In this document: positions 2,988-15,305 of the stretch, in pieces | Numbering within the stretch: position 1 is the stretch's first letter | Layout: the number at the start of each line of letters is the position of its first letter | NCBI GenBank assembly: GCA_013360535.1 | Contig: JABWBL010000022.1 | Location: forward strand, 1-15,305 | Length of the DNA: 15,305 nucleotides | Direction of reading: 5' to 3' | Source of the DNA: Planctomycetaceae bacterium | GTDB taxonomy: Bacteria; Planctomycetota; UBA1135; GCA-002686595 | Notes under the pieces: model-generated | Seen by the model: the letters and a program-made list of their open reading frames with translations, nothing else | Told to the model about the DNA's origin: nothing | The model's database searches: none | Made by a program: the position numbers and the translations under genes

Positions 2988-3180
2988 CGTTCCTCTTGGG
3001 AGCGGGCGCCGCGACCTCCATTTGCGGGACTTCAACAGACGGACGAGCAGCGCGGTCGCATCATGGCGACGTCGAGGCAGTGGGGGAGTTCGATCGCGTG
3101 AAGTGGCGGACGGCATGGGGCGCCCAGACCGTCTCGCGCTCGACCGGATCGAAGTCCCGAAGGTCGGCACACCCCGGACC

Positions 3181-3187
3181 AGGAGGT
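3181..3187 (+). promoter_or_regulatory. Strong Shine-Dalgarno sequence that fixes a GTG start
   Basis: AGGAGGT lies 8 bases before the GTG at 3196. It is the best ribosome binding site I see in the window; most other starts here have weak or no SD. It decides the start against the ATG at 3022 in the same frame and places a canonical membrane anchor at the extreme N-terminus. Confidence 0.8.
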
Positions 3188-3195
3188 CACCTGTC

Positions 3196-5076
3196 GTGAA
3201 GAAGCTCGTCGTCGCGCTTGTCGCGCTGGTGATCTTGCTGCTGCTCTTGTGGCGTTCGCGTGAGGCCGAGCGGCCCGAGCTCGTTGCGAGCGCGCCGCAA
3301 GAAGGGCTCGCTCGTGACGCCGCCGAGGCTCCGCTCGAGCTCGAGACGCCGCGCGCCGTGGTGGAGGCGACTCCGGCGAACGCTGCGGGCTCGACGGTGC
3401 GGACGGTCGCGCGAGTCCGGTTGGTCGACGGGCGCACGCGCGAACCGGCGGCGCACTTCGAGGCGCGCGTCGAGCGGGAAGCGGACTCGTGGGAGCCCGT
3501 CGCGACGAACTCCGAAGGTTGGCTCGAAGTCGAGCTCTCGGCCGAGCGGCGAGCGCGCGGCAACGTGCGGATCCTGCTCGCCGAGAACGAAGCCGGGCAG
3601 GACCTGATCCAGACACGTTCCGGCGCGAGTCAGGAGTTCCCCCGCTTCGTGGAGTTCGACGGAGCGGCGGCAGCGGAGGCGCCTGTGGAGCTCGCGATTC
3701 CGCTCGGTCCGACGTACTCCCTTGCCTTGAGCCTGCCCGCGGGTGTCGAGGCCGAGTCGCTCATGCCCGTGCTGAAAAGCGCCAATCCGAAGCAGGCCTT
3801 CGACAGCGCACACTCGACAGTGAGGTGGACACCGCAGCCGTGGGTGCGCTTCCGGCCGACGGCGAGTGGCATCGCCGGCGCCCCGCCTTACGCGCTCTCG
3901 CTCTCGACTCGCGATGGACTCTGGTTCGGCAGCGCCGAGGTCCCGACGATCGTCGGCATCCATCCCGAGCCGGTCAGGATCGAGCTCGAGGCGCGCGCTC
4001 GGGTCACCGGCGTCCTGCGCGACGACTCGGGGCGCGCGCTCGCGGGGGAGTGGGCGCGACTCGATGCCCCCGGCGCATCGTTCACGAGTTCCACCAACCG
4101 GCCGCGTCGCGTGCCGACGGACGAGGGCGGCAGGTTCAGCTTCAATGCGGTTCCCGCGGGGAGCTACACGCTCGGTGCGGAGGTCGACGGGCACGCGCCG
4201 ACGACGCTGGAGGTCACCCTCGTCGCCGGGGAAGTGACCGAGCGCGAGCTCGTGCTCCGCAAGCTCGCCGAGCCGGAGATCGTGCGCCTCACTTGCACGG
4301 CTGAGAGCGGGACGGGCACGTACGACGGCCCGCTGTACATCCGCGCCTTGCCCACCGAAGGCAAGCCGGTCGGCCACCACGTGCGCATCGAGTGGAGCGA
4401 GGAGGACGGTCGTCGCGCGGGGCGAGGCAGTGTCGAGCTGCCCGCGAGGGCCTTCCAACTCGAAGCGCAGGCCACCGGCCTGATCGAGGTCGAGCCGCGC
4501 GCGCTCGTCTGGAATCCCGGCGACGCGCCGCCGCACTTTCGCGTGCGCGACGACGCTCCGCACGGCAGCGCCACGTTCGAGGCGCTCGACCCTGCCACGG
4601 GCGAGCGGATCCGGAGCATCGCCGTCTGGATCGACCTTGTCGACGCCGAGCGGACCGCCAGCTGCAACGTGTTCGTCGACGACGGGATCGGACGGCTCGA
4701 CTGGGCTCCGCTCGGGCGCAGCGTGCGCTTTCGGATTCAATCCGAGGGCAGGCAGACTGCTTGGGGCGAGGTCGTGCCGACACTCGATGGAGTGCACGTG
4801 GTGCGCGAGCTCGCGCCGGGCTGGAGCATCGAAGTGCTCGTCCACGCCGCCGATCTCAGCCCGCTCGCCGGAGTGCGGCTCCTGTTCGACGACACGCTCG
4901 TCGGCGTGACCGACCCGACCGGAGTCCTGCGCGCATCGTTCCCGCGGACGCCGACCTCGATCCGCGCCGAGCTCGATGGCTGGCGCACGCGCACCTCGAG
5001 CACCTACGACGCCGACACCGGCCGCTTCCGCGACGGCATCCCTTGGTTGCGCCTCACGCTCGAGCCGGTGAAGTAG
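3196..5076 (+). CDS. Membrane-anchored carboxypeptidase-regulatory-like (CnaB-type) repeat protein
   Basis: This is a 626-residue protein starting at GTG, with KK followed by a hydrophobic span at residues 4-19 (LVVALVALVILLLLLW). That is an N-terminal anchor or uncleaved signal; the rest is then outside the cytoplasmic membrane. The clearest domain is a carboxypeptidase regulatory-like fold at about 265-355: VTGVLRDDSGRALAG, then a DEGGRFSFNAVPAGSYTL turn and a final Glu/Val-rich strand. Residues 69-170 and 540-626 look like diverged copies (the latter with PLAGVRLLFDD and TDPTGVLRASF). No peptidase or other catalytic motif is visible, and no sortase or lipobox motif. Family knowledge: such domains are non-enzymatic beta-sandwiches common in surface proteins. 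It is similar in plan to the two genes it converges with and to the extracytoplasmic part of the sigma fusion. Function unknown; envelope structure, adhesion or ligand sensing are possible. Confidence 0.85.
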   Translation: MKKLVVALVALVILLLLLWRSREAERPELVASAPQEGLARDAAEAPLELETPRAVVEATPANAAGSTVRTVARVRLVDGRTREPAAHFEARVEREADSWEPVATNSEGWLEVELSAERRARGNVRILLAENEAGQDLIQTRSGASQEFPRFVEFDGAAAAEAPVELAIPLGPTYSLALSLPAGVEAESLMPVLKSANPKQAFDSAHSTVRWTPQPWVRFRPTASGIAGAPPYALSLSTRDGLWFGSAEVPTIVGIHPEPVRIELEARARVTGVLRDDSGRALAGEWARLDAPGASFTSSTNRPRRVPTDEGGRFSFNAVPAGSYTLGAEVDGHAPTTLEVTLVAGEVTERELVLRKLAEPEIVRLTCTAESGTGTYDGPLYIRALPTEGKPVGHHVRIEWSEEDGRRAGRGSVELPARAFQLEAQATGLIEVEPRALVWNPGDAPPHFRVRDDAPHGSATFEALDPATGERIRSIAVWIDLVDAERTASCNVFVDDGIGRLDWAPLGRSVRFRIQSEGRQTAWGEVVPTLDGVHVVRELAPGWSIEVLVHAADLSPLAGVRLLFDDTLVGVTDPTGVLRASFPRTPTSIRAELDGWRTRTSSTYDADTGRFRDGIPWLRLTLEPVK

Positions 5077-5079
5077 CGC

Positions 5080-6579
5080 TCAGCGAGATTGCCAGCCCGG
5101 CGGCGCTCGACGGAACGTCACCGTGCCGAAATCGAGCCAGCGCAAGCGGGAAACACTCGCGTGACAGCTCCAAGGCGGCGTGCGCACGGTGGCGACGTAG
5201 AGAACGCCATTGCAGAGCCCTTCGAACTCGAACGAGGAGCCGGGCTCCCAGTCGGGGAGGCGACCGTGATCGTCCCAGAATTCGAGCAGGTCGAACTCGC
5301 CAGCGTCGTTCGCGGCGCCACCGTCCAGAGCGAGATAGTTCGGCCGCAGCTCGCCGTTCACCACTGCGTCGGTCTCCGCGTTGACCCAAGCCTTGGCCAG
5401 CGGCGAGCCACTTTCGTCGACGGCAATTCCGCGGAAGCGCACCAGGCCGCGCTGCACCGGGATCTCGCGCACGGTGACGGCGCGGCCGGGCTCGGTGCTG
5501 TCGAGCTGCACCCGCTGGAAAATCAGGTCGGGGAACGGGACATTTTCGACGATCCAGCAGCCAAGCCTGCGACCCGGCGAGACGTGAGGAAACCGGACCG
5601 AGCCCGAAAGAGCCGTCTGCCAGTGGTCCAGCGTCCTCCCGGACTCCTCGCCCTCGCGCGAATGGATCCGGACCCGGAACTCAAGGTCGAACCCTTCGAT
5701 GCGCGCTCCGTCGGATGTCGCGACGAGCTCGAGCGTGCCGCAATCGCCGAGCACGAAGCGCAGCGGCGCATTCGGCGATTCGCCGGAACCAATCACGTGC
5801 CGCGGCGGCTGCGTATCCGCCAGGGGCAACAGGAAATCGAGCTTCTCGGCCGCATCGCCGCGCCGCGTGGCGATCACCGGTACCCTCACCCGGCCGGTGC
5901 GATCCGTGAACTCCATGCGGGAGTGCTGGAGCTCCACGACCAGCGCTCCCTCCGCCGGGCGACCCGAGGCGTCGACGACCTCGATCTCGAGCTGTTCGAG
6001 CGGTCCGAGCAGGATCGTGACGCTGTCGGAGCGCGCTGGACAACGACTCATGCCAAAACGCCCGCCCTTGCGCACGCGGATCCACGGCAGCGGCGCCTCC
6101 AGCTCCACGATGGCCACGCCGTCGGAATCCGTGATGCCGTCGCCGAGGCAGCGAAACTCCTCGTCCGCGTCCACGAAATACGGCTCTCTCCGCGCGAAGT
6201 CCTCCGCTGTCTCGCCGTAACCGATGCTCCCGAGCCCACGCAGCCCGCGTGGCTGCATTCGAGGGGACTCCGGCTCCAAGTACACGCCGGCTTCGTGCAC
6301 CGGCTCGCCCGTGTCCCCGTCGAGCACGCGAACGCGCAGCTGCCGGATCTGGCTCGATTCCTCCTCCGCAGGCAAAGACGTTTCCGCTGCCGGAGTTGGT
6401 TCCGGCTCGACGGCCACTGCGACGCGCGCTCCGCCGTCTTCGAAATCTCGCTCCTCCACGCCTCGCGCCACGGGTGCGACAGCGACGGGATCTCTCGTCA
6501 CTCGCTCCTTTGCAACGAACCACCCCAACGCCGCAACCAGCGCGAGCACGACGCACAAGAGCAGTGCCGCGCGCTGCAT
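5080..6579 (-). CDS. Membrane-anchored CnaB-like protein, paralogue of the upstream gene
   Basis: This is a 499-residue protein. Residues 4-23 are hydrophobic (ALLLCVVLALVAALGWFVA) and followed by KER, consistent with an N-in signal anchor. After an acidic, Pro/Ala-rich linker (about 45-78), a regulatory-like beta-sandwich starts (RQLRVRVLDGDTGEPVHEAG, 79-98, with a TDSDGVAIVEL turn at 150-160). A second follows at about 195-235 (LEIEVVDASGRPAEGALV, TDRTGRVRVPV) and a third at about 376-470 (RFRGIAVDESGSPLAKAWV, NDAGEFDLLEF). No catalytic motif is visible. The start lies 2 bp after the stop of the 526-residue gene, so the two are almost certainly co-transcribed. Its stop is 3 bp from the stop of the convergent gene at 3196-5076. 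The anchor matches its neighbour except that Lys replaces Cys at residue 24. Specific function not recognised. Confidence 0.85.
   Translation of the reverse strand: MQRAALLLCVVLALVAALGWFVAKERVTRDPVAVAPVARGVEERDFEDGGARVAVAVEPEPTPAAETSLPAEEESSQIRQLRVRVLDGDTGEPVHEAGVYLEPESPRMQPRGLRGLGSIGYGETAEDFARREPYFVDADEEFRCLGDGITDSDGVAIVELEAPLPWIRVRKGGRFGMSRCPARSDSVTILLGPLEQLEIEVVDASGRPAEGALVVELQHSRMEFTDRTGRVRVPVIATRRGDAAEKLDFLLPLADTQPPRHVIGSGESPNAPLRFVLGDCGTLELVATSDGARIEGFDLEFRVRIHSREGEESGRTLDHWQTALSGSVRFPHVSPGRRLGCWIVENVPFPDLIFQRVQLDSTEPGRAVTVREIPVQRGLVRFRGIAVDESGSPLAKAWVNAETDAVVNGELRPNYLALDGGAANDAGEFDLLEFWDDHGRLPDWEPGSSFEFEGLCNGVLYVATVRTPPWSCHASVSRLRWLDFGTVTFRRAPPGWQSR
6515..6547 (-). repeat. Conserved leader segment, copy 1 (pairs with 8098-8130)
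   Basis: This 33-bp stretch encodes the VAALGWFV part of the anchor. It matches 29 of 33 bases with 8098-8130 in the neighbouring gene, whereas the remaining coding sequences have diverged strongly. It marks the two genes as paralogues and suggests that the anchor is constrained or was exchanged. Confidence 0.75.
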
Positions 6580-6581
6580 CG

Positions 6582-8162
6582 TCAGCGTCTCGACAGCTCC
6601 TCAAAGGCCTCGGCGAGCAAGTCCTCGGGCCACTCGATCTTCAGGCGGTCGCCGTCCCGGGTGCCCTCGATGTAGCTGGACCAGACTCCTGCAGACTCCG
6701 CCCCACGTCGGCATTCATGCAGATGAATGTCGCAGCTCTGCTGGAAAGGGAGCCCAAGTTCGTTCACTTGGCCAACCTTGAGCGAAAGCTCGAACTCGAG
6801 GCCCTCAGTCGCGGGTTCATCGCCAGGTCGGGGCGGGGAGGCGAACGTCAGGCACGCATCGATCCGTCCTCCGACGCCGTGCTCGATGGAGGGCACACGG
6901 ATGCGAGTGATTGGCGCGCGTTCGAGGAAGACGGTGCCGTCGGGCTGCAATTCGACGAGCCGCGCGGAGTGATCCAGCGCAAGGACCCACGCCTCGTGCT
7001 TCACGCCGCCGGAGATGAAGCTCGCGACGCCAGCACCGTCCGTCTTCGCGATCCGCCGTCCGCTTGCGGGATCGTGGACCTGCGCGCCGAGGATCGGATT
7101 GCCATCGCGGCTGAGCACGCGCACGCGCACGGAACGCAGGAGCGGAAGAAGGTCGAGCGGAGCACTGACAACTCGCGCTCCCGGCGTGACGTTCAGCCAC
7201 TCGGTGCTCGCAAGCTCGTGCCCATGGAGGCCGACGGTCACGCGGTACTGCCCCTCGACAACCCCCGACCAACGCAGGACCGATTCCGAACGCTCTGGAT
7301 CCCACAGATAGCGGGTCGAGCCGAGGATTTCCTCGCGGCAATCGAGGTCCGCCAGCTCCACGATCCCCCCGGTCAGGACGGGAACCTCGAACCCCGCAGT
7401 GCGTTGGTCGATCGGCAGGGTCACCTGCAGGTTCTTCGTCCCTCGGCGCACTCGCTGTTCATGGACCACCTTGCCGAGGTACGCAAAGCGCAGCGTGAGC
7501 TCGTCGGCCGATTCGTCGCAGGCGAGCGAGAATTCTCCTGAATGCTCAACGAGACCCTCCGTGACGCACGCGATCTCGTCATGAAGGGTCGGCAGAGCTG
7601 CGTTCGCCGGTACGCCGAGCAGATCGATCGCCCGGCCGGTCACGTACTCGCGAAGTTCCCGCGGACGCAACACGATCGTGCCCACCTGAATCAACCCACC
7701 GTCGCGGTGCAAAGGATCGTGCTCCCACGAGATCGGCGGCGTGCTCCCCGAAAGTGGACGTCGGTCCCGCCAGCATTCGAACTCGAGTCGATATCCCGGT
7801 CGCCACTTGCCCAGCGGTTCGCGGCACCACGTCTCGCCCGCGAGTTCGGCGTTGCCGTCGGCATCGGTCGTCCCCATGAATCGGAACTGCCAGTGGTAGC
7901 GACGATCGGGGACGATCTCGAGGCTCATTCCTGCCACTTGCTCGAACGCGAAGGGTTCCCCGCGCTCGTCGACGAAGCGTCCGATCACTCGCGCCTGCTC
8001 CGCCGAGAACACGTGCTCGAGCGGCTTGCTCAGGTCCTGCTGCGGAATCCGGAGTTCCCACCGGGAAACCTCTGTTTCGGACTCTTGCTGGCACGCGACG
8101 AACCACCCCAGCGCGGCAACAAACGCGAGCGGGGCCAGCAGGAGTTTTGACGCCGGGCGCAT
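6582..8162 (-). CDS. Putative CnaB-like lipoprotein, paralogue of the downstream gene
   Basis: This 526-residue protein starts MRPASKLLLAPLAFVAALGW and then FVAC. Cys24 after F-V-A is a plausible but non-ideal lipobox (Phe at -3), so it could be a lipoprotein. Otherwise the hydrophobic segment acts as an anchor. Regulatory-like beta-sandwich units are seen at about 57-110 (ARVIGRFVDERGEPFAFEQV, TTDADGNAELAG), 170-250 (REYVTGRAIDLLGVPANAAL) and 343-400 (RSVRVRVLSRDGNPILGAQV, KTDGAGVASFISGG). No enzymatic motif is present. It begins 55 bp after the agmatinase-family gene's stop and ends 2 bp before the 499-residue gene, consistent with one transcript. The SD is weak. Product function unknown; it is probably an envelope or surface protein working with its paralogue. 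Confidence 0.85.
   Translation of the reverse strand: MRPASKLLLAPLAFVAALGWFVACQQESETEVSRWELRIPQQDLSKPLEHVFSAEQARVIGRFVDERGEPFAFEQVAGMSLEIVPDRRYHWQFRFMGTTDADGNAELAGETWCREPLGKWRPGYRLEFECWRDRRPLSGSTPPISWEHDPLHRDGGLIQVGTIVLRPRELREYVTGRAIDLLGVPANAALPTLHDEIACVTEGLVEHSGEFSLACDESADELTLRFAYLGKVVHEQRVRRGTKNLQVTLPIDQRTAGFEVPVLTGGIVELADLDCREEILGSTRYLWDPERSESVLRWSGVVEGQYRVTVGLHGHELASTEWLNVTPGARVVSAPLDLLPLLRSVRVRVLSRDGNPILGAQVHDPASGRRIAKTDGAGVASFISGGVKHEAWVLALDHSARLVELQPDGTVFLERAPITRIRVPSIEHGVGGRIDACLTFASPPRPGDEPATEGLEFELSLKVGQVNELGLPFQQSCDIHLHECRRGAESAGVWSSYIEGTRDGDRLKIEWPEDLLAEAFEELSRR
8098..8130 (-). repeat. Conserved leader segment, copy 2 (pairs with 6515-6547)
   Basis: This segment encodes FVAALGWFV in the 526-residue protein and shares 29 of 33 bases with 6515-6547. 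The codon just after the repeat differs in kind: TGC (Cys24) here and AAG (Lys24) in the other copy. The change falls exactly at the possible lipidation site. Confidence 0.75.
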
Positions 8163-8217: not shown

Positions 8218-9276
8218 TCAGCTGCGCCGCGTCATCAGCGCGACGCCGATCAGCTTGTAGAGCAGGCGCGCGCCGACCATCGCGTCCCAGCTGTCCTCGT
8301 CGTCGGCGGCGGAGCCGGGGTTGACCTCGTTGAGGTCGAGGCCGACGACGCGCTTGCCCGAGCGCGCGAGCTCCTCGAGCCACAGGTTGACCTCGTCCCA
8401 GCGCAGGCCGCCGGGCACGGGCGTGCCGGTGTTGGGGCACAGCGCCGGGTCGAGGCCGTCGATGTCGAAGGAGACGTAGACGTTGTGGGGGAGTTCGGCG
8501 AGCTTGAGGCGCACGAAGTCGACGAGGCCGGAGCCCGCGAGGCGCGCGCGCGACCACTCGCGGTCGTAGACGGTGACGATGCGACCGCGCGAGTTGCTGA
8601 TGCGCTCGCTCTCTTCCTCGCAGAAGTCGCGGATGCCGACTTGCACGAGCCGCGTCACGCCGCGCAGCTTGCGCTCGACGTTGTCCATGATCGACGCGTG
8701 GCTCCACTCGAAGCCCTCGTAGGCGACGCGCAGGTCCGCGTGCGCATCGAAGTGCAGCACGCCGAAGTCCGAAAAAGCCTCGGAACAGGCCCGAATCGCG
8801 CCAAACGGCGTCGAGTGGTCGCCGCCGACGAGCGCGGGGAGCTTCTTCGCCGCGAGGATCTGCTTCGTCGCCTCGTAGACGCGTGTGTTGATTTCCTCGG
8901 AGATCTCGTTGACTTGCGCGACCGCTTCCTCGAGCTCCGGATCGCCGTGGTGCGCGCCCCCAGCCGCGATCACTTGATCCGCGAGCACCGACGCGTTGCG
9001 GTTGAGCGTCGCGATGCGCACGTCCGGCTCGAGCATCGTCATGCCCTGCTCGTAAGGCCGCCCCGTGAACGCATCGAACAGGTCCACCTGCCGGCTCGCG
9101 CGCAAGATCGCGTCCGGCCCCTTCCACGCGCCCTTGCGATACGACGCCGTCGCATCAAACGGCACCGGCAACACGTGCACCGCCGCCTCCTCGAGACTCG
9201 CATTGAGCCCAAAGATGCCGCTGTCGGGAAGCGCCGCTGCGTTCGGATCAAAATGCTCCATGGGGGCGAAGATCAT
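8218..9276 (-). CDS. speB: Agmatinase-family ureohydrolase (arginase superfamily)
   Basis: This 352-residue cytosolic enzyme should hydrolyse a guanidino compound to urea and an amine, most likely agmatine to putrescine. All Mn-ligand motifs are intact: GGDHS (151-155, His154), DAHAD (177-181), and SFDIDGLDP (269-277, Asp271 and Asp273). The PNTGTPVPGG loop (281-290) and GLDLNEVNP (312-320, Glu317) are also typical. The N-terminal VPFDATASYRKGAWKGP segment matches agmatinases better than arginases. The ATG at 9276 was chosen because earlier in-frame starts lie inside the preceding gene; the ATG at 9261 is an alternative. It sits 35 bp after the sigma-fusion stop and 55 bp before a CnaB-like gene, an odd place for a polyamine enzyme. 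No arginine decarboxylase is seen nearby. Arginase, guanidinobutyrase, formimidoylglutamase or guanidinase activity cannot be excluded, so the gene symbol is provisional. Confidence 0.85.
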   Translation of the reverse strand: MIFAPMEHFDPNAAALPDSGIFGLNASLEEAAVHVLPVPFDATASYRKGAWKGPDAILRASRQVDLFDAFTGRPYEQGMTMLEPDVRIATLNRNASVLADQVIAAGGAHHGDPELEEAVAQVNEISEEINTRVYEATKQILAAKKLPALVGGDHSTPFGAIRACSEAFSDFGVLHFDAHADLRVAYEGFEWSHASIMDNVERKLRGVTRLVQVGIRDFCEEESERISNSRGRIVTVYDREWSRARLAGSGLVDFVRLKLAELPHNVYVSFDIDGLDPALCPNTGTPVPGGLRWDEVNLWLEELARSGKRVVGLDLNEVNPGSAADDEDSWDAMVGARLLYKLIGVALMTRRS

Positions 9277-9311: not shown

Positions 9312-12300
9312 TCAGCGGGGCTGCACCTTGAAGTCGAGCGCGAGGCCGTTCGTGCCTCCGGCGCCGAGCTCGAACTCGATCGGAACGGAGCGCGCCGGGC
9401 CGGAGGACCCGAGTGAAGCGCTGTAGCGGCCTGCGCGCAGCCCCGACAGCGTGAACTTGCCGTGACCCTGCGCGTCGGCCGGCACTCGGACATGGCGCGA
9501 GCGTTCGGAGGGAGCGTCGACGCGGCGCAGGTACAGACTGAGCCAACGCCCTCCGCGCGTATCGACAGCGAGGAGCTCCTCCGGCGCGCTGAGCGTTCCC
9601 GAGCAGGCGACGCCGGGATCGAGCTTCAGCTCGAGCGTGAGCTGCTTCTCAGCCGGGTTCACCGTGAACGTGCTCTCCGCGAAGCCGCGCGTCGGATGCT
9701 CCGCAAACGCGCTGTAGTCGCCGGGCTGGTACAGCGAGAACGCACCGCGCCCGTCCCCATCGGACGAAAGCAGCATGTCGCCGAGCCTCCGCCCGGTTCG
9801 GTCGAGGATCTCGAAGTGCGCGTCCGGCACGGACTTGCCCCGACCCTCGACGACCCGCACCTCCACTCGGATGCGCGCGAGTTGCAGGTCGAGCTTGCGG
9901 ACTTCACCGGGAGCGAGTTCGAGAACATCCCGCCACGGCGTCGAGAAGTCCTCGTCGGTCATGCGCTGGAAGCTCAGCCACGCGACGTACTTGCCGGGCT
10001 TGAGGAGCCCCGAGTCGAAGTCACCAGAACGGTCGAGCACAAGTTCGCGCTCGAACTTCGACAACTCACCCATGCCGCTGAGGTGCACGCGGAGATCTTT
10101 CGTCGCTCCTTCGAGGTGCACGCGGCCCAGCACGCGCGCCGTCGCGCCCTCCGGAGCCTCGAAGCCCGGCACGAGCTCGAGCACCAGGTCCGTACGTTCG
10201 TTCCCGCGCACTCCGACGCGTCCCGTGAGCTGGACACCTCGTTCGGGATCCGCCGCGCGCTCGAGCGCCGGAGGCATCTCGGAGGGTTCGAGCAGGTCGT
10301 AGGTCCACGTGCGCGGCGCGACGCGCTCGAAAATCGCCACGCCTGCGGCATCGGTCGTCGCCTGCAGGGGAGCGAGCTCGCGGGCAAAGGTCTCGAGGCG
10401 AAGGGTCTTCGGAGTCGCGGCAGGTCGGCCGCGTTCGAGCACCTGGACACGCAGGCTTCCCCCGAGCCCAAGCTCGATGCGCTGCGGCTGCTCCTGCAAA
10501 CTCAGCGGAATGCTGAGCGCCACCGCGAACTCGGGGTGCCACACGCGGAGCGTCGGCTCGCGTGGCTCAGAGATCGCCGGCATCGTCAAGCTCGCGAGGC
10601 CGTCGACGCCCGTGGTCGAATCCGTCAAGGTCGAGCCGCCCCCGGACACCAGCAGGACCTTCGCGCCGGAAACCGGACTTCCGTCGCCGCCGTCGACGAT
10701 GAGGACACGATGTTCGTGAGCCGCACCGAGGCGGAGCGTGACTTCCGCCGGCGCTGAACCAAGCTCCACGGATTCCGAGCCCGTGGCGAAACCCGGTTTG
10801 CTCGCCCACAGGAAGTAACTGCCCGGCGCGAGCGCGTCGAACAGGACGTCGCCGCTTCCGCGGCGCACGTCGCGATCGCAACGCGCGAGCACGTTGGGCC
10901 GTTGCTTGGGCATCGAGAGCGGGACGAGCTGCACTTCGACGTCGTCGAGCGGCGAACCCGCCGCATCGTGCACGTGCACGACCAAGGTCGACGTCGCCGC
11001 GAGGCGCAGATCGAGCTGCGCGCTGCTCTCGAAGCGTTCCAGCTGCCATGCGTGCGTCGGCTTCCGTCGCGCAGCGACGAACACGGGCCCGATTGCCGCG
11101 AGCGCCGAGCGCTCGAAACGCCCCTCGGCCTCCGTGGTGGCGGCAAACATCGTCGCCGGCTGTCCTTCCGCTTCCTGCACGCCAATCCGGACCTCGACGC
11201 CTTCGAGCGGCTTGCCTTCGCTGTCGCGCACATGCCCTTGCACCGAGCGTCCGCGCTCCATGCGCACATCGCCGAGCTCCACGGCGCCCGAAGCGAGCTG
11301 CAGTCCCTCCGCATGGCTCTCCACGAATCCTGCGCGATCGAAATGCAGCGCGGTCGTGCTCGCGGGCAACTCCACACGGAAACGGCCGTCCGTTCCACTC
11401 CCCACGGTCGGCACGGGGAACCGCTCGAACCACTCCCACGCCCAGGCGGCGGTTTCCTGCATCGAGAGCCGTCCGCGGAGTTCGTTGGCCAGGGCCTCCA
11501 CCGAGGTCAGCGACCCGATCCCCTTGGCTTCAAGTCCCGGTCGCACGCGCACGCCCGCGAGCGGTGCTCCATCCGCATCGACCACACGGCCTGTCACGAC
11601 GACACGCGCACCGATCGAGACGTCGCCGAGCTCGAGCTCCCCCTCGGGCGTCGGCGAGTCCTCGATCCAGTGCAGGTGCCCCCGCGGCCCGCCGCAGTCG
11701 ATGCCGAGCACGTGCATGTCGCCGCGACGCGCGCCAGCGAGCACGAAACGACCTTCCGAGTCCGTGACGCAGCGCGAGCGCTCGACATCCGGTGTCGACG
11801 CCACCCGATCGATGGGCTTGTTCAGCCATTCGCTCGAGATCACGCCGAGCCGGATCTCGATGCCAGGGAGCGGAACGCCGTTCCCATCGACGAGCCGACC
11901 GCGCAAGCCGCGCTGCGCGAGGCTTGATCCTGCCGCCCGCTCCGGTTCGACGCGGGCTTCGAGGCTCGAGCTCGGCGCTGTCGCGCTGTACGAAGGCACC
12001 GCCGACGTGGCCGACGAATCGAACGTCGCGGCGGTGCCGAGCTCGTACGCCGCGGACTCCGCCGACGCTCCGAACCAGCGCACTCCGCCGAGTACGAGCA
12101 GCGCGAGCACGGCGAACAGCGCCACCATCGGCGCAAACGCGACCTTCGTCGCCGGCACTGCCAGCCCGCGGGCGCGGCAGGCGCTCTCGAGCAGCTCGGA
12201 GCGCATTCTCCGCAACTGCGGCGGTTCCACGAACCACGCGAGGAACGTCTTGCCGAGCGCGCGCCGCAGCAGCTCGAGCCCACGATGGACCTGCATGCGC

Positions 12301-12767
12301 ACGGTGCCGGGAGCGCGGCCCGTCAGCGCTCCGATCTCGTCTGAGCTGAACTCACCGGCGAGATAGGGGACGAGCACCGCCGAATAGCGTCGAGGGAGCT
12401 CCTCCAACGCCGCGGCGACCTTCGCACGCAGTTCCGCGCGCTCCAGTGCCTCATCCGGAGGTTCGTGGCGTGCCAGATCTTGAAGTTCCGTCGTGCGCCC
12501 GCGCTTGCGCCGCAAGTTGCGCGCGTGCAGCACCAGGATGCCGACCAGCCACGGCATGGGATCGCGGCCGCGCTCGAGCGTGTGCGCCTTCTCGATCGCC
12601 GTCAGGAACGTCGCCTGCACGAGGTCTTCCGCGTCCGCTCGCGATGCCCCGAGATGCCGCGCGACACGCAGCAGCTCCGCTCCGCAGTCGTCAAACGCTC
12701 GCCCCAGCGCCTCCGTGTCCCCGGCCTCGCGAAAGCGCCCGAACAGCGTGACCAAGTCGTGTCTCAT
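9312..12767 (-). CDS. ECF sigma factor fused to a membrane span and extracytoplasmic CnaB-like repeats
   Basis: This is one uninterrupted 1151-residue frame. Residues 24-92 are sigma-70 region 2, with the hallmark DAEDLVQATFLTAIEK (45-60) and a PMPWLVGILVLHARNLRRK helix (70-88). Residues 113-172 are region 4 with a complete helix-turn-helix (LPRRYSAVLVPYLAGEFSSD, then IGALTGRAPGTVRMQVHRGL). A basic stretch (186-208) precedes one transmembrane segment at about 209-228 (VAFAPMVALFAVLALLVLGG). A Ser/Thr/Ala linker (233-270) leads to about nine carboxypeptidase-regulatory-like units starting near 287, 389, 506, 592, 685, 770, 876, 963 and 1053, with cues such as GRVVDADGAPLAGVRV and TDSEGRFVLAG. 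Expected topology is sigma inside and repeats outside. Planctomycetes are known for ECF sigma factors with long C-terminal extensions; this makes a sensor-regulator plausible, without a separate anti-sigma factor. The ATG at 12767 has only a weak SD. Four same-strand genes flank it closely. The signal and target promoters are unknown. Confidence 0.9.
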   Translation of the reverse strand: MRHDLVTLFGRFREAGDTEALGRAFDDCGAELLRVARHLGASRADAEDLVQATFLTAIEKAHTLERGRDPMPWLVGILVLHARNLRRKRGRTTELQDLARHEPPDEALERAELRAKVAAALEELPRRYSAVLVPYLAGEFSSDEIGALTGRAPGTVRMQVHRGLELLRRALGKTFLAWFVEPPQLRRMRSELLESACRARGLAVPATKVAFAPMVALFAVLALLVLGGVRWFGASAESAAYELGTAATFDSSATSAVPSYSATAPSSSLEARVEPERAAGSSLAQRGLRGRLVDGNGVPLPGIEIRLGVISSEWLNKPIDRVASTPDVERSRCVTDSEGRFVLAGARRGDMHVLGIDCGGPRGHLHWIEDSPTPEGELELGDVSIGARVVVTGRVVDADGAPLAGVRVRPGLEAKGIGSLTSVEALANELRGRLSMQETAAWAWEWFERFPVPTVGSGTDGRFRVELPASTTALHFDRAGFVESHAEGLQLASGAVELGDVRMERGRSVQGHVRDSEGKPLEGVEVRIGVQEAEGQPATMFAATTEAEGRFERSALAAIGPVFVAARRKPTHAWQLERFESSAQLDLRLAATSTLVVHVHDAAGSPLDDVEVQLVPLSMPKQRPNVLARCDRDVRRGSGDVLFDALAPGSYFLWASKPGFATGSESVELGSAPAEVTLRLGAAHEHRVLIVDGGDGSPVSGAKVLLVSGGGSTLTDSTTGVDGLASLTMPAISEPREPTLRVWHPEFAVALSIPLSLQEQPQRIELGLGGSLRVQVLERGRPAATPKTLRLETFARELAPLQATTDAAGVAIFERVAPRTWTYDLLEPSEMPPALERAADPERGVQLTGRVGVRGNERTDLVLELVPGFEAPEGATARVLGRVHLEGATKDLRVHLSGMGELSKFERELVLDRSGDFDSGLLKPGKYVAWLSFQRMTDEDFSTPWRDVLELAPGEVRKLDLQLARIRVEVRVVEGRGKSVPDAHFEILDRTGRRLGDMLLSSDGDGRGAFSLYQPGDYSAFAEHPTRGFAESTFTVNPAEKQLTLELKLDPGVACSGTLSAPEELLAVDTRGGRWLSLYLRRVDAPSERSRHVRVPADAQGHGKFTLSGLRAGRYSASLGSSGPARSVPIEFELGAGGTNGLALDFKVQPR

Positions 12768-12809
12768 GACCGTACTCGTCGCGAGCGACCGCCTTGCAAC
12801 GCTGCGCGC

Positions 12810-13169
12810 TCAGAAATCTCGGCGCCGCGGGCCGGTCGCGCGCGGGGAACGTCGGTCGAGAACGAGCAGGGTGACGAGGACGAGGGCGTGGGTGAGGCCG
12901 AAGATGCTCCAGGTGAGCACGACATCGAGGCCGGCGAATTGCGAGTGCTGCGTCGGTGGGCCCGGCTCCTGGAGCGCGAGGAAGCCGAGGCTGAGGAGCA
13001 GGCAGCTCGCGAGGGCGGCGAGCACGAGCGCGAGCGCACGCAGGCCACGTTTCCATCCGAGGCGACGCGCCACGAAGTACACGAGGCACGGCAGCGGCAG
13101 GCTCGCGGCCAGCGCAAGCACGAGGCTGAAGAGCGGACCCGCGAGGCTCACGCTCGCCGAGGCTAGCAC
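12810..13169 (-). CDS. Small three-helix membrane protein, function unknown
   Basis: From a GTG at 13169 this gives 119 residues; the GTG at 13151 would give 113, and an ATG at 13250 would give 146 with an unlikely non-hydrophobic N-terminus. Three hydrophobic helices are visible: about 8-33 (GPLFSLVLALAASLPLPCLV), 44-67 (ALALVLAALASCLLLSLGFL), and 80-105 (DVVLTWSIFGLTHALVLVTL). Arg/Lys-rich segments lie between helices 1 and 2 and at the C-terminus (DRRSPRATGPRRRDF), which predicts a cytoplasmic tail. Third-position GC is very high, as in its neighbours, supporting real coding. No family is recognised. It ends 42 bp before the sigma fusion and on the same strand, so it is probably the first gene of that operon. 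A role in controlling the fusion sigma factor is possible, but nothing in the sequence shows it. Confidence 0.6.
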   Translation of the reverse strand: MLASASVSLAGPLFSLVLALAASLPLPCLVYFVARRLGWKRGLRALALVLAALASCLLLSLGFLALQEPGPPTQHSQFAGLDVVLTWSIFGLTHALVLVTLLVLDRRSPRATGPRRRDF

Positions 13170-13248
13170 CCCCGAGCCTGAGTGGGACGGAGTTCCAGCG
13201 GAGGCCGAAGTCGTGGGGCGGCGAGCGTGCGCTATCGTTCGGGCGAGC
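13170..13248. promoter_or_regulatory. Divergent intergenic region, expected promoters for both directions
   Basis: This is about 79 bp between the leftward small membrane protein and the rightward DUF3667 gene. It must carry the promoter of the leftward five-gene cluster unless that lies inside the DUF3667 gene, and probably that of the rightward gene. I found no convincing -35/-10 pair. A GGAACT on the - strand (13196-13191) recalls the ECF -35 element, but no matching -10 is clear. Confidence 0.35.
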
Positions 13249-14085
13249 ATGCAAGGAAGCGAGACGAGGACCTGCGCGACGTGCGGGGCGGTCGTGACGG
13301 GCGCGTATTGCGCGAGTTGCGGCGAAAAGAGCCTCGTGCGCGAGGAGCTGACGCTCGCGGAGCAGGCGCGGCAAGTTTGGAGCGGGCTCGTTCGGTACGA
13401 CGCGAAAACGCTGCGATCGCTGGTGCTGCTCGGGCTCCGGCCCGGATTCCTGGCGTTCGAGTACTGCCGCGGCGCGCGCATCCGCTACCTGAAGCCCGTG
13501 CAGCTGTTCCTGCTCGCGAACGTGCTGTACTTCCTCGCGGCGCCGTACTTGGAAGTGCCGTCGCTGCGCTCGGCGCTCGAGGCGCGCTTCGAGGGGAAGT
13601 TGTACGACCTGCATTTCGACGCGGCCTTCCGCCAGCAAGTCGAGGCGAGTGGAGGGGCGGTGGGGGAGCTCGCGCAGCAGTTTCGCGAGGTCCACGAGCG
13701 CTGGGCGCGCGCGTTGCTCGCGCTGCTGGTGCCGCCGGTGACGCTCGTTCTCGCGCTGTTCGACACGCGGCGCAAGCGCACGCTGATCGAGCAGGCGGTG
13801 CTCGCGCTCAACTTCGTCGCCTTCGCCGTGCTGTACGCGCAGGTCGGCGTCGGGTTCGCCGTGGGCAAGCTCACGAACTCCGCGGACCCCGCGACGGCGG
13901 AAGTGGCCGTGACGGCGGCGACCGAGGCCGTGCTGATCCTGTGGTGGACGCTCGCGTTCCAGCGCTTCTACGGGTGGCACTGGCGCCGCGGCCTGCTGCA
14001 GGCCTTGGCGATGGCGCACCTCGTGTTCCCGCTCGTGATCGGCTACCGCTACCTGCTCGGCTGGCTCACGCTCTGGACGCTGTGA
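13249..14085 (+). CDS. DUF3667-type membrane protein with N-terminal zinc ribbon
   Basis: This 278-residue protein begins with a zinc-binding ribbon of four cysteines, CATC (9-12) and CASC (21-24). The segment LRPGFLAFEYCRGARIRYLK (63-82) followed by a hydrophobic stretch is the signature of DUF3667 proteins. About five membrane helices follow: 84-100, 154-171, 183-205, 222-240 and 250-272. A soluble loop (101-150) lies between the first two. DUF3667 proteins are widespread in bacteria and have no established function; the ribbon is expected in the cytoplasm. The ATG at 13249 is chosen because it directly precedes the ribbon; its SD is weak (GGGCGAG). The gene is divergent from the small membrane protein and converges with the lipoprotein gene, with 6 bp between the stops. 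There is no visible link to the sigma fusion beyond position. Confidence 0.85.
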   Translation: MQGSETRTCATCGAVVTGAYCASCGEKSLVREELTLAEQARQVWSGLVRYDAKTLRSLVLLGLRPGFLAFEYCRGARIRYLKPVQLFLLANVLYFLAAPYLEVPSLRSALEARFEGKLYDLHFDAAFRQQVEASGGAVGELAQQFREVHERWARALLALLVPPVTLVLALFDTRRKRTLIEQAVLALNFVAFAVLYAQVGVGFAVGKLTNSADPATAEVAVTAATEAVLILWWTLAFQRFYGWHWRRGLLQALAMAHLVFPLVIGYRYLLGWLTLWTL

Positions 14086-14091
14086 CGCGCG

Positions 14092-14913
14092 TCAGTCGCG
14101 CAGTTCCTTGAGCAGCGCGCGCACGGAGCTCTCGAGCGCGTGGTCGCGCGGGTGTTGCGGCGCTGCGGCGAGCGCGGCCTCGAGCTCGGCGCGCGCTTCG
14201 GCCTTGCGCTCGGCCGCGACGAGCACCTTGGCGAGGATCAGGCGGTTTTCCCGCGAAGGAACGGCCTTCACGGCGCTGCGCGCGCTCGCTTCGGCCTTCG
14301 CGAGGCTCGACTCCGGCAAGCCCGAGGCCATCAGCGACGCGATCCACGGCAGCGTCTCGAGGCGCAGGTTGACGAGCGCGACGGTCGCGAGCGCCGTGGC
14401 GTTGTCGGGTTCCACGGTCAGTGCACGATCCGCGCACTCCAGTGTCTCGCGCGCGTGGGCGGCGCGCTCGCCCATCGGCTGCAGGTGCGTCGTCGTGCCG
14501 AGCGTCCACGCGAGCTGGGCATCGACGGAAGGAGCCAGATGAGCCGAGAGTACGGCGCGGCGTGCGAACCAGAGCGCGCTCGATGCGGCGAGGTTGCGCG
14601 ACTCCTTGTCGTCCTCGGGGAGCAGGAAGACCTGATCGGATTCCGCGATCGACGCCGCGAGCAGCGCCTCGAAGTCGACCGGGTGTTCCGCAGCGAGCGC
14701 GAGCGCAAGTTGGCGCGCCCGCGCCAGCTCGTCGGCTGCACGCAGCGTCCGCACCTCGTCGAGCTCGGTCTTGCGCGCGCCCCGGCTTGCCTCGGGCCGC
14801 GCGACGCTCTCGCGCTCCTGCCACTCGAGCACGTCCTCATGCAGCACGCGCGGACCAGCGCAGGCGGAAACGAGCAGGGCGAGCGAGAGGGCGATGAGGC
14901 GCAGCGTGGGCAT
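14092..14913 (-). CDS. TPR-containing lipoprotein
   Basis: This 273-residue protein starts MPTLRLIALSLALLVSAC, a classic lipoprotein signal with lipobox V-S-A-C (Cys18). A longer frame starting at 14958 would overlap the preceding sigma gene and bury the signal peptide, so the ATG at 14913 was chosen. The mature part is almost all helical, with Ala/Leu-rich paired helices typical of TPRs. Units are visible near 57-90, 110-140, 148-185 (ARETLECADRALTVEPDNAT) and 203-253 (ARSAVKAVPSRENRLILAKV, then KAEARAELEAALAAAPQHP). It begins 11 bp after the stop of the sigma gene, so the two are probably one transcript. TPR lipoproteins often scaffold envelope complexes. A similarity to TRAP-associated TatT proteins is conceivable but weak. 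Specific function is not recognised; linkage to the sigma factor suggests an envelope sensing or response role. Confidence 0.85.
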   Translation of the reverse strand: MPTLRLIALSLALLVSACAGPRVLHEDVLEWQERESVARPEASRGARKTELDEVRTLRAADELARARQLALALAAEHPVDFEALLAASIAESDQVFLLPEDDKESRNLAASSALWFARRAVLSAHLAPSVDAQLAWTLGTTTHLQPMGERAAHARETLECADRALTVEPDNATALATVALVNLRLETLPWIASLMASGLPESSLAKAEASARSAVKAVPSRENRLILAKVLVAAERKAEARAELEAALAAAPQHPRDHALESSVRALLKELRD

Positions 14914-14924
14914 GAAACTCGAAT

Positions 14925-15305
14925 TCACTTGGTCGGTCCCAGCTCGCGCGCGAGCCACAGCCGCGCGACCTTCCAGGACCGGGTGAGCGTGGCGGTGGAG
15001 ATGCCGAGCACGCGCGCGGTCTCCTCGGTCGAGAGCCCGCCGAAGAAGCGCAGCTCGACGATGCGCGCCTGCCGCTCGTCCAGGCCCGCGAGCACCTGTA
15101 GCGCGTCCTCCAGCGCGACGAAGTCGATCTGCTCCTCCGGCGCGAGGTGCGCCGCCACGCTGAGCGAGACGCGCTGCCAGTCGCCGCCGCGCTTCGCCGC
15201 CTCTCCCCGCCGGTGGTGATCGACGAGGATCTGGCGCATCACGTTCGCGGCGAGCGCGAGGAAGTGGCTCTTCCCCATGTCGCGCAGCGCGGTGATGCGG
15301 CCTGC
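14925..15305 (-). CDS. ECF-like sigma factor, Sigma70_ECF (TIGR02999-like), N-terminus outside the window
   Basis: The frame is open to the right edge, so about the first third is missing. The 126 visible residues run from AGRITALRD through MGKSHFLALAANVMRQILVD, matching the '(G)HFfa.AA.aMRrILvd.aR' part of region 2 in the planctomycete ECF-like family. A region 4 helix-turn-helix then follows: LDERQARIVELRFFGGLSTE, then ETARVLGISTATLTRSWKVA, and a WLARELG end. This family is abundant in Planctomycetota and often adjacent to TPR kinases; here it precedes a TPR lipoprotein. It belongs to a different lineage from the sigma module in the fusion gene. An internal ATG at 15278 is not the true start because conserved sequence continues upstream. 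Expected role: directs RNA polymerase to a stress or envelope regulon; the signal is unknown. Confidence 0.88.
   Translation of the reverse strand, partial: AGRITALRDMGKSHFLALAANVMRQILVDHHRRGEAAKRGGDWQRVSLSVAAHLAPEEQIDFVALEDALQVLAGLDERQARIVELRFFGGLSTEETARVLGISTATLTRSWKVARLWLARELGPTK

What the first reader, a model, noticed from the sequence alone, without database searches (positions are those of the whole stretch)
9312..12767. One-piece trans-envelope sigma factor: ECF sigma, membrane span and about nine CnaB-like repeats in one polypeptide
A single 1151-residue frame joins intact sigma regions 2 and 4 to one membrane helix (about 209-228) and about 920 residues of repeated carboxypeptidase-regulatory-like domains. 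The topology places the DNA-binding part inside and the repeats outside. ECF sigma factors are normally held by a separate membrane anti-sigma factor; here the sensor seems to be covalently attached. Planctomycete ECFs with long C-terminal extensions are known, but this combination of a clean anchor with a long adhesin-like ectodomain could be a little-described class. Release might need intramembrane proteolysis, or the membrane-tethered form may be active. Mechanism is inference.
Basis: partly seen in the sequence, partly recalled or inferred. Interest (0 to 1): 0.78.

Follow-up and report, generated by a model that had tools for sequence, protein, structure and literature searches.

The report
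Membrane-anchored, self-transcribing sigma factor
A planctomycete gene encodes one protein that joins a gene-switching sigma factor to a membrane anchor and a long outward-facing chain of immunoglobulin-like domains, and DNA comparisons indicate that proteins of this large family switch on their own genes.

Summary
Confirmed. On the minus strand (12767 to 9312) a 1151-aa frame joins sigma regions 2 and 4, one membrane helix (209-228) and about nine CarboxypepD_reg/CnaB-like domains. It is no assembly join: full-length relatives occur on other contigs. The architecture is expanded: in a single-contig genome of the same family, 67 of 120 sigma-region-2 matches lie in frames with a membrane helix and at least 445 residues beyond it.

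Unexpected: 81 of 118 related fusion starts carry an ECF-like -35 box, mostly 34-35 nt before the start codon (other genes: 36 of 326 starts), implying leaderless mRNA. The box co-varies with one residue of the same protein's sigma4 recognition helix (M158 here, equivalent to base-contacting S172 of E. coli sigmaE): top of 5220 base/residue pairs, 12 of 12 testable new loci, box differs in 15 of 16 independent pairs differing in residue against 5 of 33 with the same residue. So the sigma part is probably functional and reads its own promoter.

Membrane-fused ECFs are known (IutY, ECF52); this one lacks an anti-sigma domain. Release by proteolysis remains inference.

The parts
9312..12767 (-). 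whole fusion gene, 1151 aa (ECF sigma, membrane helix, CarboxypepD_reg/CnaB-like ectodomain)
   Evidence: full-length relatives
12796..12800 (-). -35-like box GTTGC, starting 33 nt before the ATG
   Evidence: same box at the same place in 4 of 4 orthologues compared (window, G004, G010, G049); related boxes in further fusion genes
12776..12782 (-). -10-like element GCGACGA, 8 nt before the ATG (leaderless start expected)
   Evidence: CGWCNA at offset 19-20 from the box start in 16 of 19 occurrences
12492..12683 (-). sigma region 2 (residues 29-92)
   Evidence: PDB sequence matches to ECF sigma factors; fold matches
12270..12422 (-). sigma region 4 (residues 116-166), with the recognition helix
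12294..12296 (-). codon of M158, the residue that co-varies with the -35 box
12144..12254 (-). juxtamembrane segment (residues 172-208), 37 residues, no anti-sigma domain found
   Evidence: 16% identity in distant members; no family match there; helix 183-200 at modest confidence
12084..12143 (-). membrane helix (residues 209-228)
   Evidence: hydropathy; helix 215-232, low pLDDT
9315..11909 (-). ectodomain: about nine beta-sandwich domains of CarboxypepD_reg/CnaB type (residues 287-1151)
   Evidence: (7 stretches)

Best explanation
The gene encodes a functional one-piece trans-envelope ECF sigma factor. The N-terminal sigma domain faces the cytoplasm, one signal-anchor helix crosses the membrane, and a stack of CnaB-like domains faces outward and acts as the sensory or surface part. 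The sigma domain recognises the promoter of its own gene (and of any other gene with a matching promoter), so the gene drives itself from a promoter whose start site should coincide with the ATG. Shown by tools: architecture, conservation, family expansion, promoter box, co-variation of the box with the recognition helix. Inferred: topology (positive-inside rule), leaderless start (spacing), autoregulation in the cell. Least certain: the switch itself. I think it most likely (about 55%) that cleavage in or next to the membrane frees the sigma domain when the ectodomain is altered; the alternative is that the tethered form is active at the membrane.
For: Domains, membrane helix and model. Conserved in full length. 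In 19 distant relatives of similar length the sigma regions keep 52% and 47% identity while the membrane helix keeps 18% and the ectodomain 26%, as expected if the sigma part works and the helix is only an anchor. Residues invariant in 35 of 35 aligned members include D48, L49, Q51, W73, R86, R87, R157, R162. Promoter box: with a consensus taken from 24 sequences, 31 of 58 further fusion genes have it 27-40 nt before the start, against a shuffle mean of 2.6 and maximum of 9 in 200; with a broader box 81 of 118 fusion starts against 36 of 326 starts (32 of 113 genes, up to three starts each) of other genes in the same loci. Box and residue 158: first of 168 columns, z 13.2 against 5.7 for the next (49 sequences), and 12.2 against 4.7 among 39 sequences under 60% identity; first two of 5220 base/residue pairs, z 15.1 and 12.6 against 7.0 (71 representatives of the 80 sequences with a box); 12 of 12 testable new loci agree with the rule fixed beforehand, permutation mean 5.2, 0 of 10000 reach it; on a tree of 80 sequences built without column 158, the box differs in 15 of 16 edge-disjoint pairs that differ in residue class (in 12 of these 15 both boxes are the ones the rule names) and in 5 of 33 pairs with the same class. 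By spacing the residue corresponds to S172 of E. coli sigmaE and T171 of SigW, which bond to base -34 (passages of PMC6713349). GTTGC-N13/14-GCGACGA-N8-ATG occurs only at the fusion gene in G000, G004, G010 and G049.
Against: No experiment. 37 of 118 fusion starts have no recognised box, and in G071 only 16 of 67 fusions do, so autoregulation is indicated for this clade and not for all fusions. Exceptions to the rule among the 81 with a box: T with GTGAC in 2, V with GTCAC in 1 and GCAGC in 1, A with GTCAC in 2, S with GTCGC in 1. Few -35 classes serve many paralogues, so cross-talk within a class is likely. Site-2 proteases are not obviously expanded. By hydropathy 64 of 121 listed proteins (query included) have exactly one segment, 53 have more and 4 none at the 1.6 threshold; K/R before the helix exceed those after it in 34 of the 64, with 16 tied, so orientation and a single span are not proven family-wide. 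The membrane helix of the model has low pLDDT.
Confidence: 0.74

Rival explanations
1. Tethered-active model: the sigma domain is never released; it recruits polymerase to its own promoter at the membrane, so that transcription, translation and insertion of the surface protein are coupled, and the ectodomain gates it by conformation or clustering.
For: No anti-sigma domain found between region 4 and the helix (37 residues); self-matched promoter at the start codon; 2-8 site-2 protease family matches per genome although one of these genomes has 67 such fusions.
Against: Known membrane-fused ECFs are thought or shown to be activated by proteolysis (passages of PMC8999054). How a tethered sigma would behave during promoter escape is not testable here.
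Confidence: 0.3
2. The sigma region is a decayed or repurposed domain, used only as a cytoplasmic anchor of a surface protein.
For: Relatives exist whose match begins only at residue 195-219 (helix and ectodomain) in frames with little room for a sigma region, for example L020 with a frame of 962 aa, so the ectodomain does not need it.
Against: The sigma regions are the best conserved part, many of their positions are invariant, and the recognition residue co-varies with the gene's own promoter.
Confidence: 0.05
3. All fusion genes are transcribed by one separate ECF sigma factor, and the boxes only look matched because of shared ancestry.
For: The boxes share a common GTNRC/GCARC frame at about the same distance.
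Against: The box follows the residue in the adjacent protein across 22 inferred residue changes, also within one genome (G022: V with GTAACG in L331 and L410, S with GCAACG in L395, L411, L419), and column 158 far exceeds the other columns, which share the same ancestry.
Confidence: 0.06
4. Ordinary ECF with a separate anti-sigma factor; the C-terminal extension is irrelevant to regulation.
For: A small membrane protein may be encoded just upstream (12810-13481, minus strand).
Against: That ORF has no Pfam match at 0.1 and no relative at 1e-6 in 20 loci around fusion genes of other genomes.
Confidence: 0.07

Closest known systems
IutY of Pseudomonas putida (ECF243)
   Same: ECF sigma and membrane segment in one chain; activity controlled by the attached membrane part
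   Different: IutY carries a fused anti-sigma factor and is cleaved by Prc and RseP (PMC8999054 passages); here no anti-sigma domain was found and the ectodomain is a CnaB-like stack; a TonB-type receptor was not looked for
SCO4117 and group ECF52 (also ECF48, ECF53) of Actinobacteria
   Same: sigma, membrane span and extracytoplasmic part in one protein; SCO4117 regulates its own gene (PMC5826349, abstract and outline)
   Different: [quoted passage not shown] none of these domains was found here
ECF41 (C-terminal SnoaL_2 extension)
   Same: fused regulatory extension, single detected target transcript, -35 TGTCACA with -10 CGTC (passages of PMC3426412), close in type to GTGACG and CGTCGA here
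   Different: no membrane span in the extension (recalled); spacer 16 +/- 1 and a 22/23-nt leader at the mapped promoters, against 13-14 and apparently none here
Planctomycete ECF-WD40 and kinase-repeat fusions (ECF57; Gemmataceae)
   Same: lineage-specific expansion of signalling proteins with long repeat extensions (passages of PMC8999054 and PMC11032199)
   Different: WD40/TPR arrays rather than a CnaB-like stack; promoter co-variation is not mentioned in the passages I saw

Membership tests
ECF (group 4) sigma factor | sigma regions 2 and 4 and little else in the sigma part | tested here: met
   PDB ECF matches within residues 2-171; fold matches
ECF (group 4) sigma factor | recognises an ECF-type bipartite promoter, usually including its own | tested here: met
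   by sequence co-variation only, no experiment:
Membrane-fused ECF activated by proteolysis (IutY, ECF52 type) | sigma and membrane helix in one polypeptide | tested here: met
Membrane-fused ECF activated by proteolysis (IutY, ECF52 type) | fused anti-sigma or zinc-finger domain between sigma and helix | tested here: not met
   only 37 residues between region 4 and the helix, no Pfam match there
Membrane-fused ECF activated by proteolysis (IutY, ECF52 type) | activated by cleavage | not testable with these tools
   site-2 protease family present in 6 of 6 genomes, which decides nothing
CarboxypepD_reg / CnaB-like domain proteins | repeated CarboxypepD_reg domains above the curated cut-off | tested here: met
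   131.3 bits against a cut-off of 32.3, 7 stretches; fold matches to CnaB and carboxypeptidase regulatory domains
Canonical ECF with separate anti-sigma factor | adjacent anti-sigma gene | tested here: inconclusive
   upstream ORF 12810-13481 has no Pfam match at 0.1; downstream gene is a ureohydrolase

The most novel reading that the evidence does not exclude
A planctomycete order has turned the ECF sigma factor into a self-driving surface-protein module: each gene carries its own sigma factor, its own leaderless promoter and its own outward-facing domain stack, so that each locus is a positive-feedback ON/OFF switch for one surface protein, read out at the membrane with or without cleavage. 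Tens of such modules per genome, sorted into promoter-specificity classes by one recognition-helix residue, would form a repertoire of self-maintaining surface states.
Probability: 0.25. Interest if true: 0.9.

Novelty: new variant of a known kind. Interest (0 to 1): 0.74.

Why it matters
It would put sensing, membrane passage and promoter choice in a single protein, and it is the most common sigma architecture in at least one genome (67 of 120 sigma-region-2 matches). The promoter is legible: one recognition-helix residue goes with the -35 box in front of the same gene, so targets of uncultured planctomycete sigma factors can be predicted and tested in a standard host. It also gives natural data on how ECF promoter specificity shifts by paired changes in protein and DNA, and it makes a direct test possible of whether a sigma factor can work while tied to the membrane.

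Tried and rejected
Synteny: of the window's other genes only the C-terminal domain of the beta-helix protein had relatives (1e-6, ORFs of 100 aa or more) in 20 loci around fusion genes of other genomes, so context gave no partner or target. Genome-wide promoter enrichment: the loose pattern is at or below the reversed-pattern control in the genomes searched (one search used a spacer of 15-18, wrong for this gene, and is no evidence either way); with RTG added it is 9 against 4 in G000, 10 against 7 in G004, 12 against 7 in G001, 17 against 15 in G010 and 7 against 8 in G049, so no wide regulon can be claimed. G071: 0 of 77 long frames matched this gene's own box and -10 (starts uncertain) and 16 of 67 the broad box. 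Co-variation of the -10 with region 2: weak only (position 84 with offsets 21 and 22, z 4.5, ranks 23-24 of 5220); I do not claim it. Expansion of site-2 proteases as support for cleavage: not seen. Viral contigs: no match. Foldseek against the PDB could not be run; the VIA-align second look was used instead. Families absent from that list are not excluded.

Weak points in method: membrane helices are by hydropathy, not by a trained predictor. Start codons of relatives were chosen by distance to the homologous start, without looking at the box. The rule that S/A goes with GCARC was noticed in the listing, so 76 of 80 (permutation mean 52.1, maximum 64) is descriptive, not a blind test. In one search the association was tested on the same sequences in which I had seen it; one search is the independent test. 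Of 27 rows, 24 were used; L012 (much like L009), L064 and L002 (upstream cut) were left out. Of 60 loci fetched, two (L324, L370) were dropped as duplicates of discovery loci; of 40 fetched, four had no sigma match and were dropped. Ten of the 118 lie in frames of under 597 aa in the listing (contig ends or free sigma factors); for the four (L059, L061-L063) I did not measure the frame. Searches use only the 80 of 118 sequences with a box and residue V, M, T, S or A.
Full report

IT IS NOT AN ASSEMBLY JOIN. The protein search lists five further proteins at 78-99% identity over 100% of the query and ten at 38-44% over 99-100% (251 proteins at E up to 0.001 among 8000 scored candidates, 120 listed). 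In whole genomes, 118 of 199 relatives match at 1e-10 (this counts matches to parts as well), with full-length copies in G010, G049, G172, G156 and others. A second match, to residues 71-404, lies in the window's own genome, which is a 728-contig assembly, 78% complete.

EXPANSION. In the window's genome 27 places match Sigma70_r2. It is fragmented; a membrane segment in the long frame shows in 5 of these (L039, L041, L042, L050, L052, where three of the frames are cut by the stretch fetched, and L034, L036 and L038 were not resolved). In G071, same family and a single 7.72-Mb contig, 120 places match. I fetched 77 of them, all those with frames of 436 aa or more. 67 of these 77, so 67 of 120, have a helix (mean at least 1.6) 169-215 residues after the start of region 2 and at least 445 residues beyond it. 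Of 72 of the 77 scanned with Pfam (the 67 and five with a weaker helix), 71 match Sigma70_r2, 70 Sigma70_r4_2 and 60 CarboxypepD_reg. Relatives whose match covers only the helix and ectodomain also exist (beginning at residue 195-219), in one genome directly beside a fusion (G056:C108).

THE SIGMA PART IS THE CONSERVED PART. Against 19 distant relatives of similar length the window protein keeps 52% (region 2), 47% (region 4), 16% (juxtamembrane), 18% (helix) and 26% (ectodomain) identity. Positions D48, L49, Q51, W73, R86, R87, R157 and R162 are among those invariant in 35 of 35; that such positions touch polymerase or DNA in ECF sigma factors is recalled.

THE PROMOTER. Just upstream of the window gene and three orthologues (G004, G010, G049) stand GTTGC, then 13 or 14 bases, GCGACGA, 8 bases and ATG, in sequence that is otherwise little alike. 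In other fusion genes the box varies (GTGACG, GTAACG, GTAGCA and others) but sits at about the same distance. With a consensus fixed on 24 sequences (16 of which fit it) I fetched 60 further fusion starts (two dropped as duplicates): 31 of 58 have it 27-40 nt before the start, mostly at 34-35, against 2.6 on average and at most 9 in 200 dinucleotide shuffles. With a broader box, 81 of 118 fusion starts have it, against 36 of 326 starts (32 of 113 genes) of other genes in the same loci. CGWCNA, close to the usual ECF -10, lies 19 or 20 bases from the box start in 16 of 19 occurrences. A -35 box that begins about 34 bases before the ATG means that transcription should start at the ATG itself, so the mRNA should be leaderless (inference from spacing).

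THE BOX FOLLOWS THE PROTEIN. Listing boxes beside recognition helices showed a pattern: V at P0001 position 158 with GTAACG, M with GTGACG or GTTGCG, T with GTAGCA. Among 168 sigma columns, 158 is first by far (z 13.2, next 5.7, 49 sequences; 12.2 and 4.7 among 39 sequences under 60% identity). Since all columns share the same ancestry, this is a control for relatedness. In 40 newly fetched loci (4 without a sigma match dropped) 13 of 36 have the GT box; of 12 testable, 12 agree with the rule set beforehand (permutation mean 5.2; 0 of 10000). Over all 118: M has a GT box in 36 of 37 (GTGAC 22, GTTGC 10, GTGGC 3, GTTAC 1); V has GTAAC in 13 of 25, 9 without a box, 3 with others; T has GTAGC in 6 of 20, GTCGC in 1, 11 without and 2 with GTGAC against the rule; S and A together have GCARC in 16 of 30, 11 without a box, 3 with a GT box. 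In a scan of 5220 base/residue pairs the first two are position 158 with box bases 2 and 3. On a tree built without that column there are 22 changes of residue class; in edge-disjoint pairs that differ in class the box differs in 15 of 16 (in 12 of the 15 both boxes are those the rule names), in those with the same class in 5 of 33. By the spacing T-x-R-X it corresponds to S172 of E. coli sigmaE and T171 of B. subtilis SigW, which bond to the base at -34 (PMC6713349, passages). If GTNRC is laid in register on GGAAC of sigmaE and GAAAC of SigW, box bases 2 and 3 are -34 and -33 (inference), so the base next to which this residue sits in the solved complexes is the one that ranks first here. So the sigma domains of this clade read a box of the kind found before their own genes. 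This is the strongest result here; it argues for function of the sigma domain, without an experiment.

REGULON. In G000, G004, G010 and G049 GTTGC-N13/14-GCGACGA-N8-ATG is found only at the fusion gene; G001, searched alongside, has one such match at another place. The looser pattern exceeds the reversed one in G000 (9 against 4) and is closer to it in the others (10/7, 12/7, 17/15, 7/8). The regulon may thus be very small, as for ECF41, which appears to control a single transcript (PMC3426412, passages). Promoters with other -10 forms would be missed.

MECHANISM. Shown: architecture, conservation, expansion, promoter, co-variation. Inferred: orientation, leaderless start, positive autoregulation, control by the ectodomain. 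Only 37 residues separate region 4 and the helix and no family matches there, so the attached anti-sigma domain of IutY and the zinc finger of ECF52 seem to be missing. Holding the sigma domain at the membrane, or the helix 183-200, would have to do that work. Site-2 protease family matches are few (2-8 per genome in 6 genomes, several being two pieces of one protein), which permits cleavage but does not argue for it.

LITERATURE. Seen: passages of PMC8999054, PMC8103513, PMC11032199, PMC6713349 and PMC3426412; abstract and outline of PMC5826349. Not held: four papers looked up by id, which I take from citations or recall to be the 2021 ECF reclassification, the 2012 planctomycete survey, the 2020 Gemmataceae paper and the 2020 ECF specificity paper; so an ECF group number could not be assigned, and earlier mention there cannot be excluded. 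In the listings of searches I saw no paper on this architecture by title or start of abstract; one search found no paper that holds all of its three terms.

VERDICT. A real, widespread and probably functional variant of the membrane-fused ECF sigma factor, with a self-matched, apparently leaderless promoter. New variant of a known kind; interest 0.74.

Noticed in passing
window 440-2950 (+): Beta-helix protein whose last 140 residues (697-836) recur in several proteins near fusion genes in other genomes (L246, L248, L256); looks like a shared C-terminal export or anchoring domain.
   Followed up: partly
window 3022-5076 (+), 5080-6579 (-), 6582-8162 (-): Three neighbouring proteins with a hydrophobic segment near the N-terminus and weak to clear CarboxypepD_reg matches but no sigma match; the first 33 residues of the last two are 48% identical.
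   Followed up: partly
window 8218-9276 (-): Ureohydrolase (arginase/agmatinase family) whose likely ATG is 35 nt downstream of the fusion gene's stop; possible co-transcription.
   Followed up: no
window 12810-13481 (-): Possible small multi-span membrane protein ending 42 nt before the fusion start; no Pfam match at 0.1.
   Followed up: partly
window 14925-15305 (-): C-terminal part of a PF07638-type ECF sigma factor cut by the contig end, overlapping a frame with weak TPR matches (14092-14958).
   Followed up: no
window 12493-14085 (+): Frame with DUF3667 and a weak zinc-ribbon match.
   Followed up: no
G022:C1 about 4807000-4816800 (L411, L419, L410, L395): Four fusion-type sigma genes within 10 kb, with residue S, S, V, S and boxes GCAACG, GCAACG, GTAACG, GCAACG respectively: matched within one cluster.
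   Followed up: partly
G071, L180, L197, L236 (K) and L214, L221 (Q): K or Q at the recognition position goes with GTCACG/GTCACA in these five, a further possible class; but other K members show GTGACC, GTGACT, GTTACC or GCAGCC (L191, L209, L210, L224).
   Followed up: no
fusion promoters L003, L005, L029, L061: These have AGAATC or AGAATG just upstream of the -35 box, perhaps an extended element.
   Followed up: no
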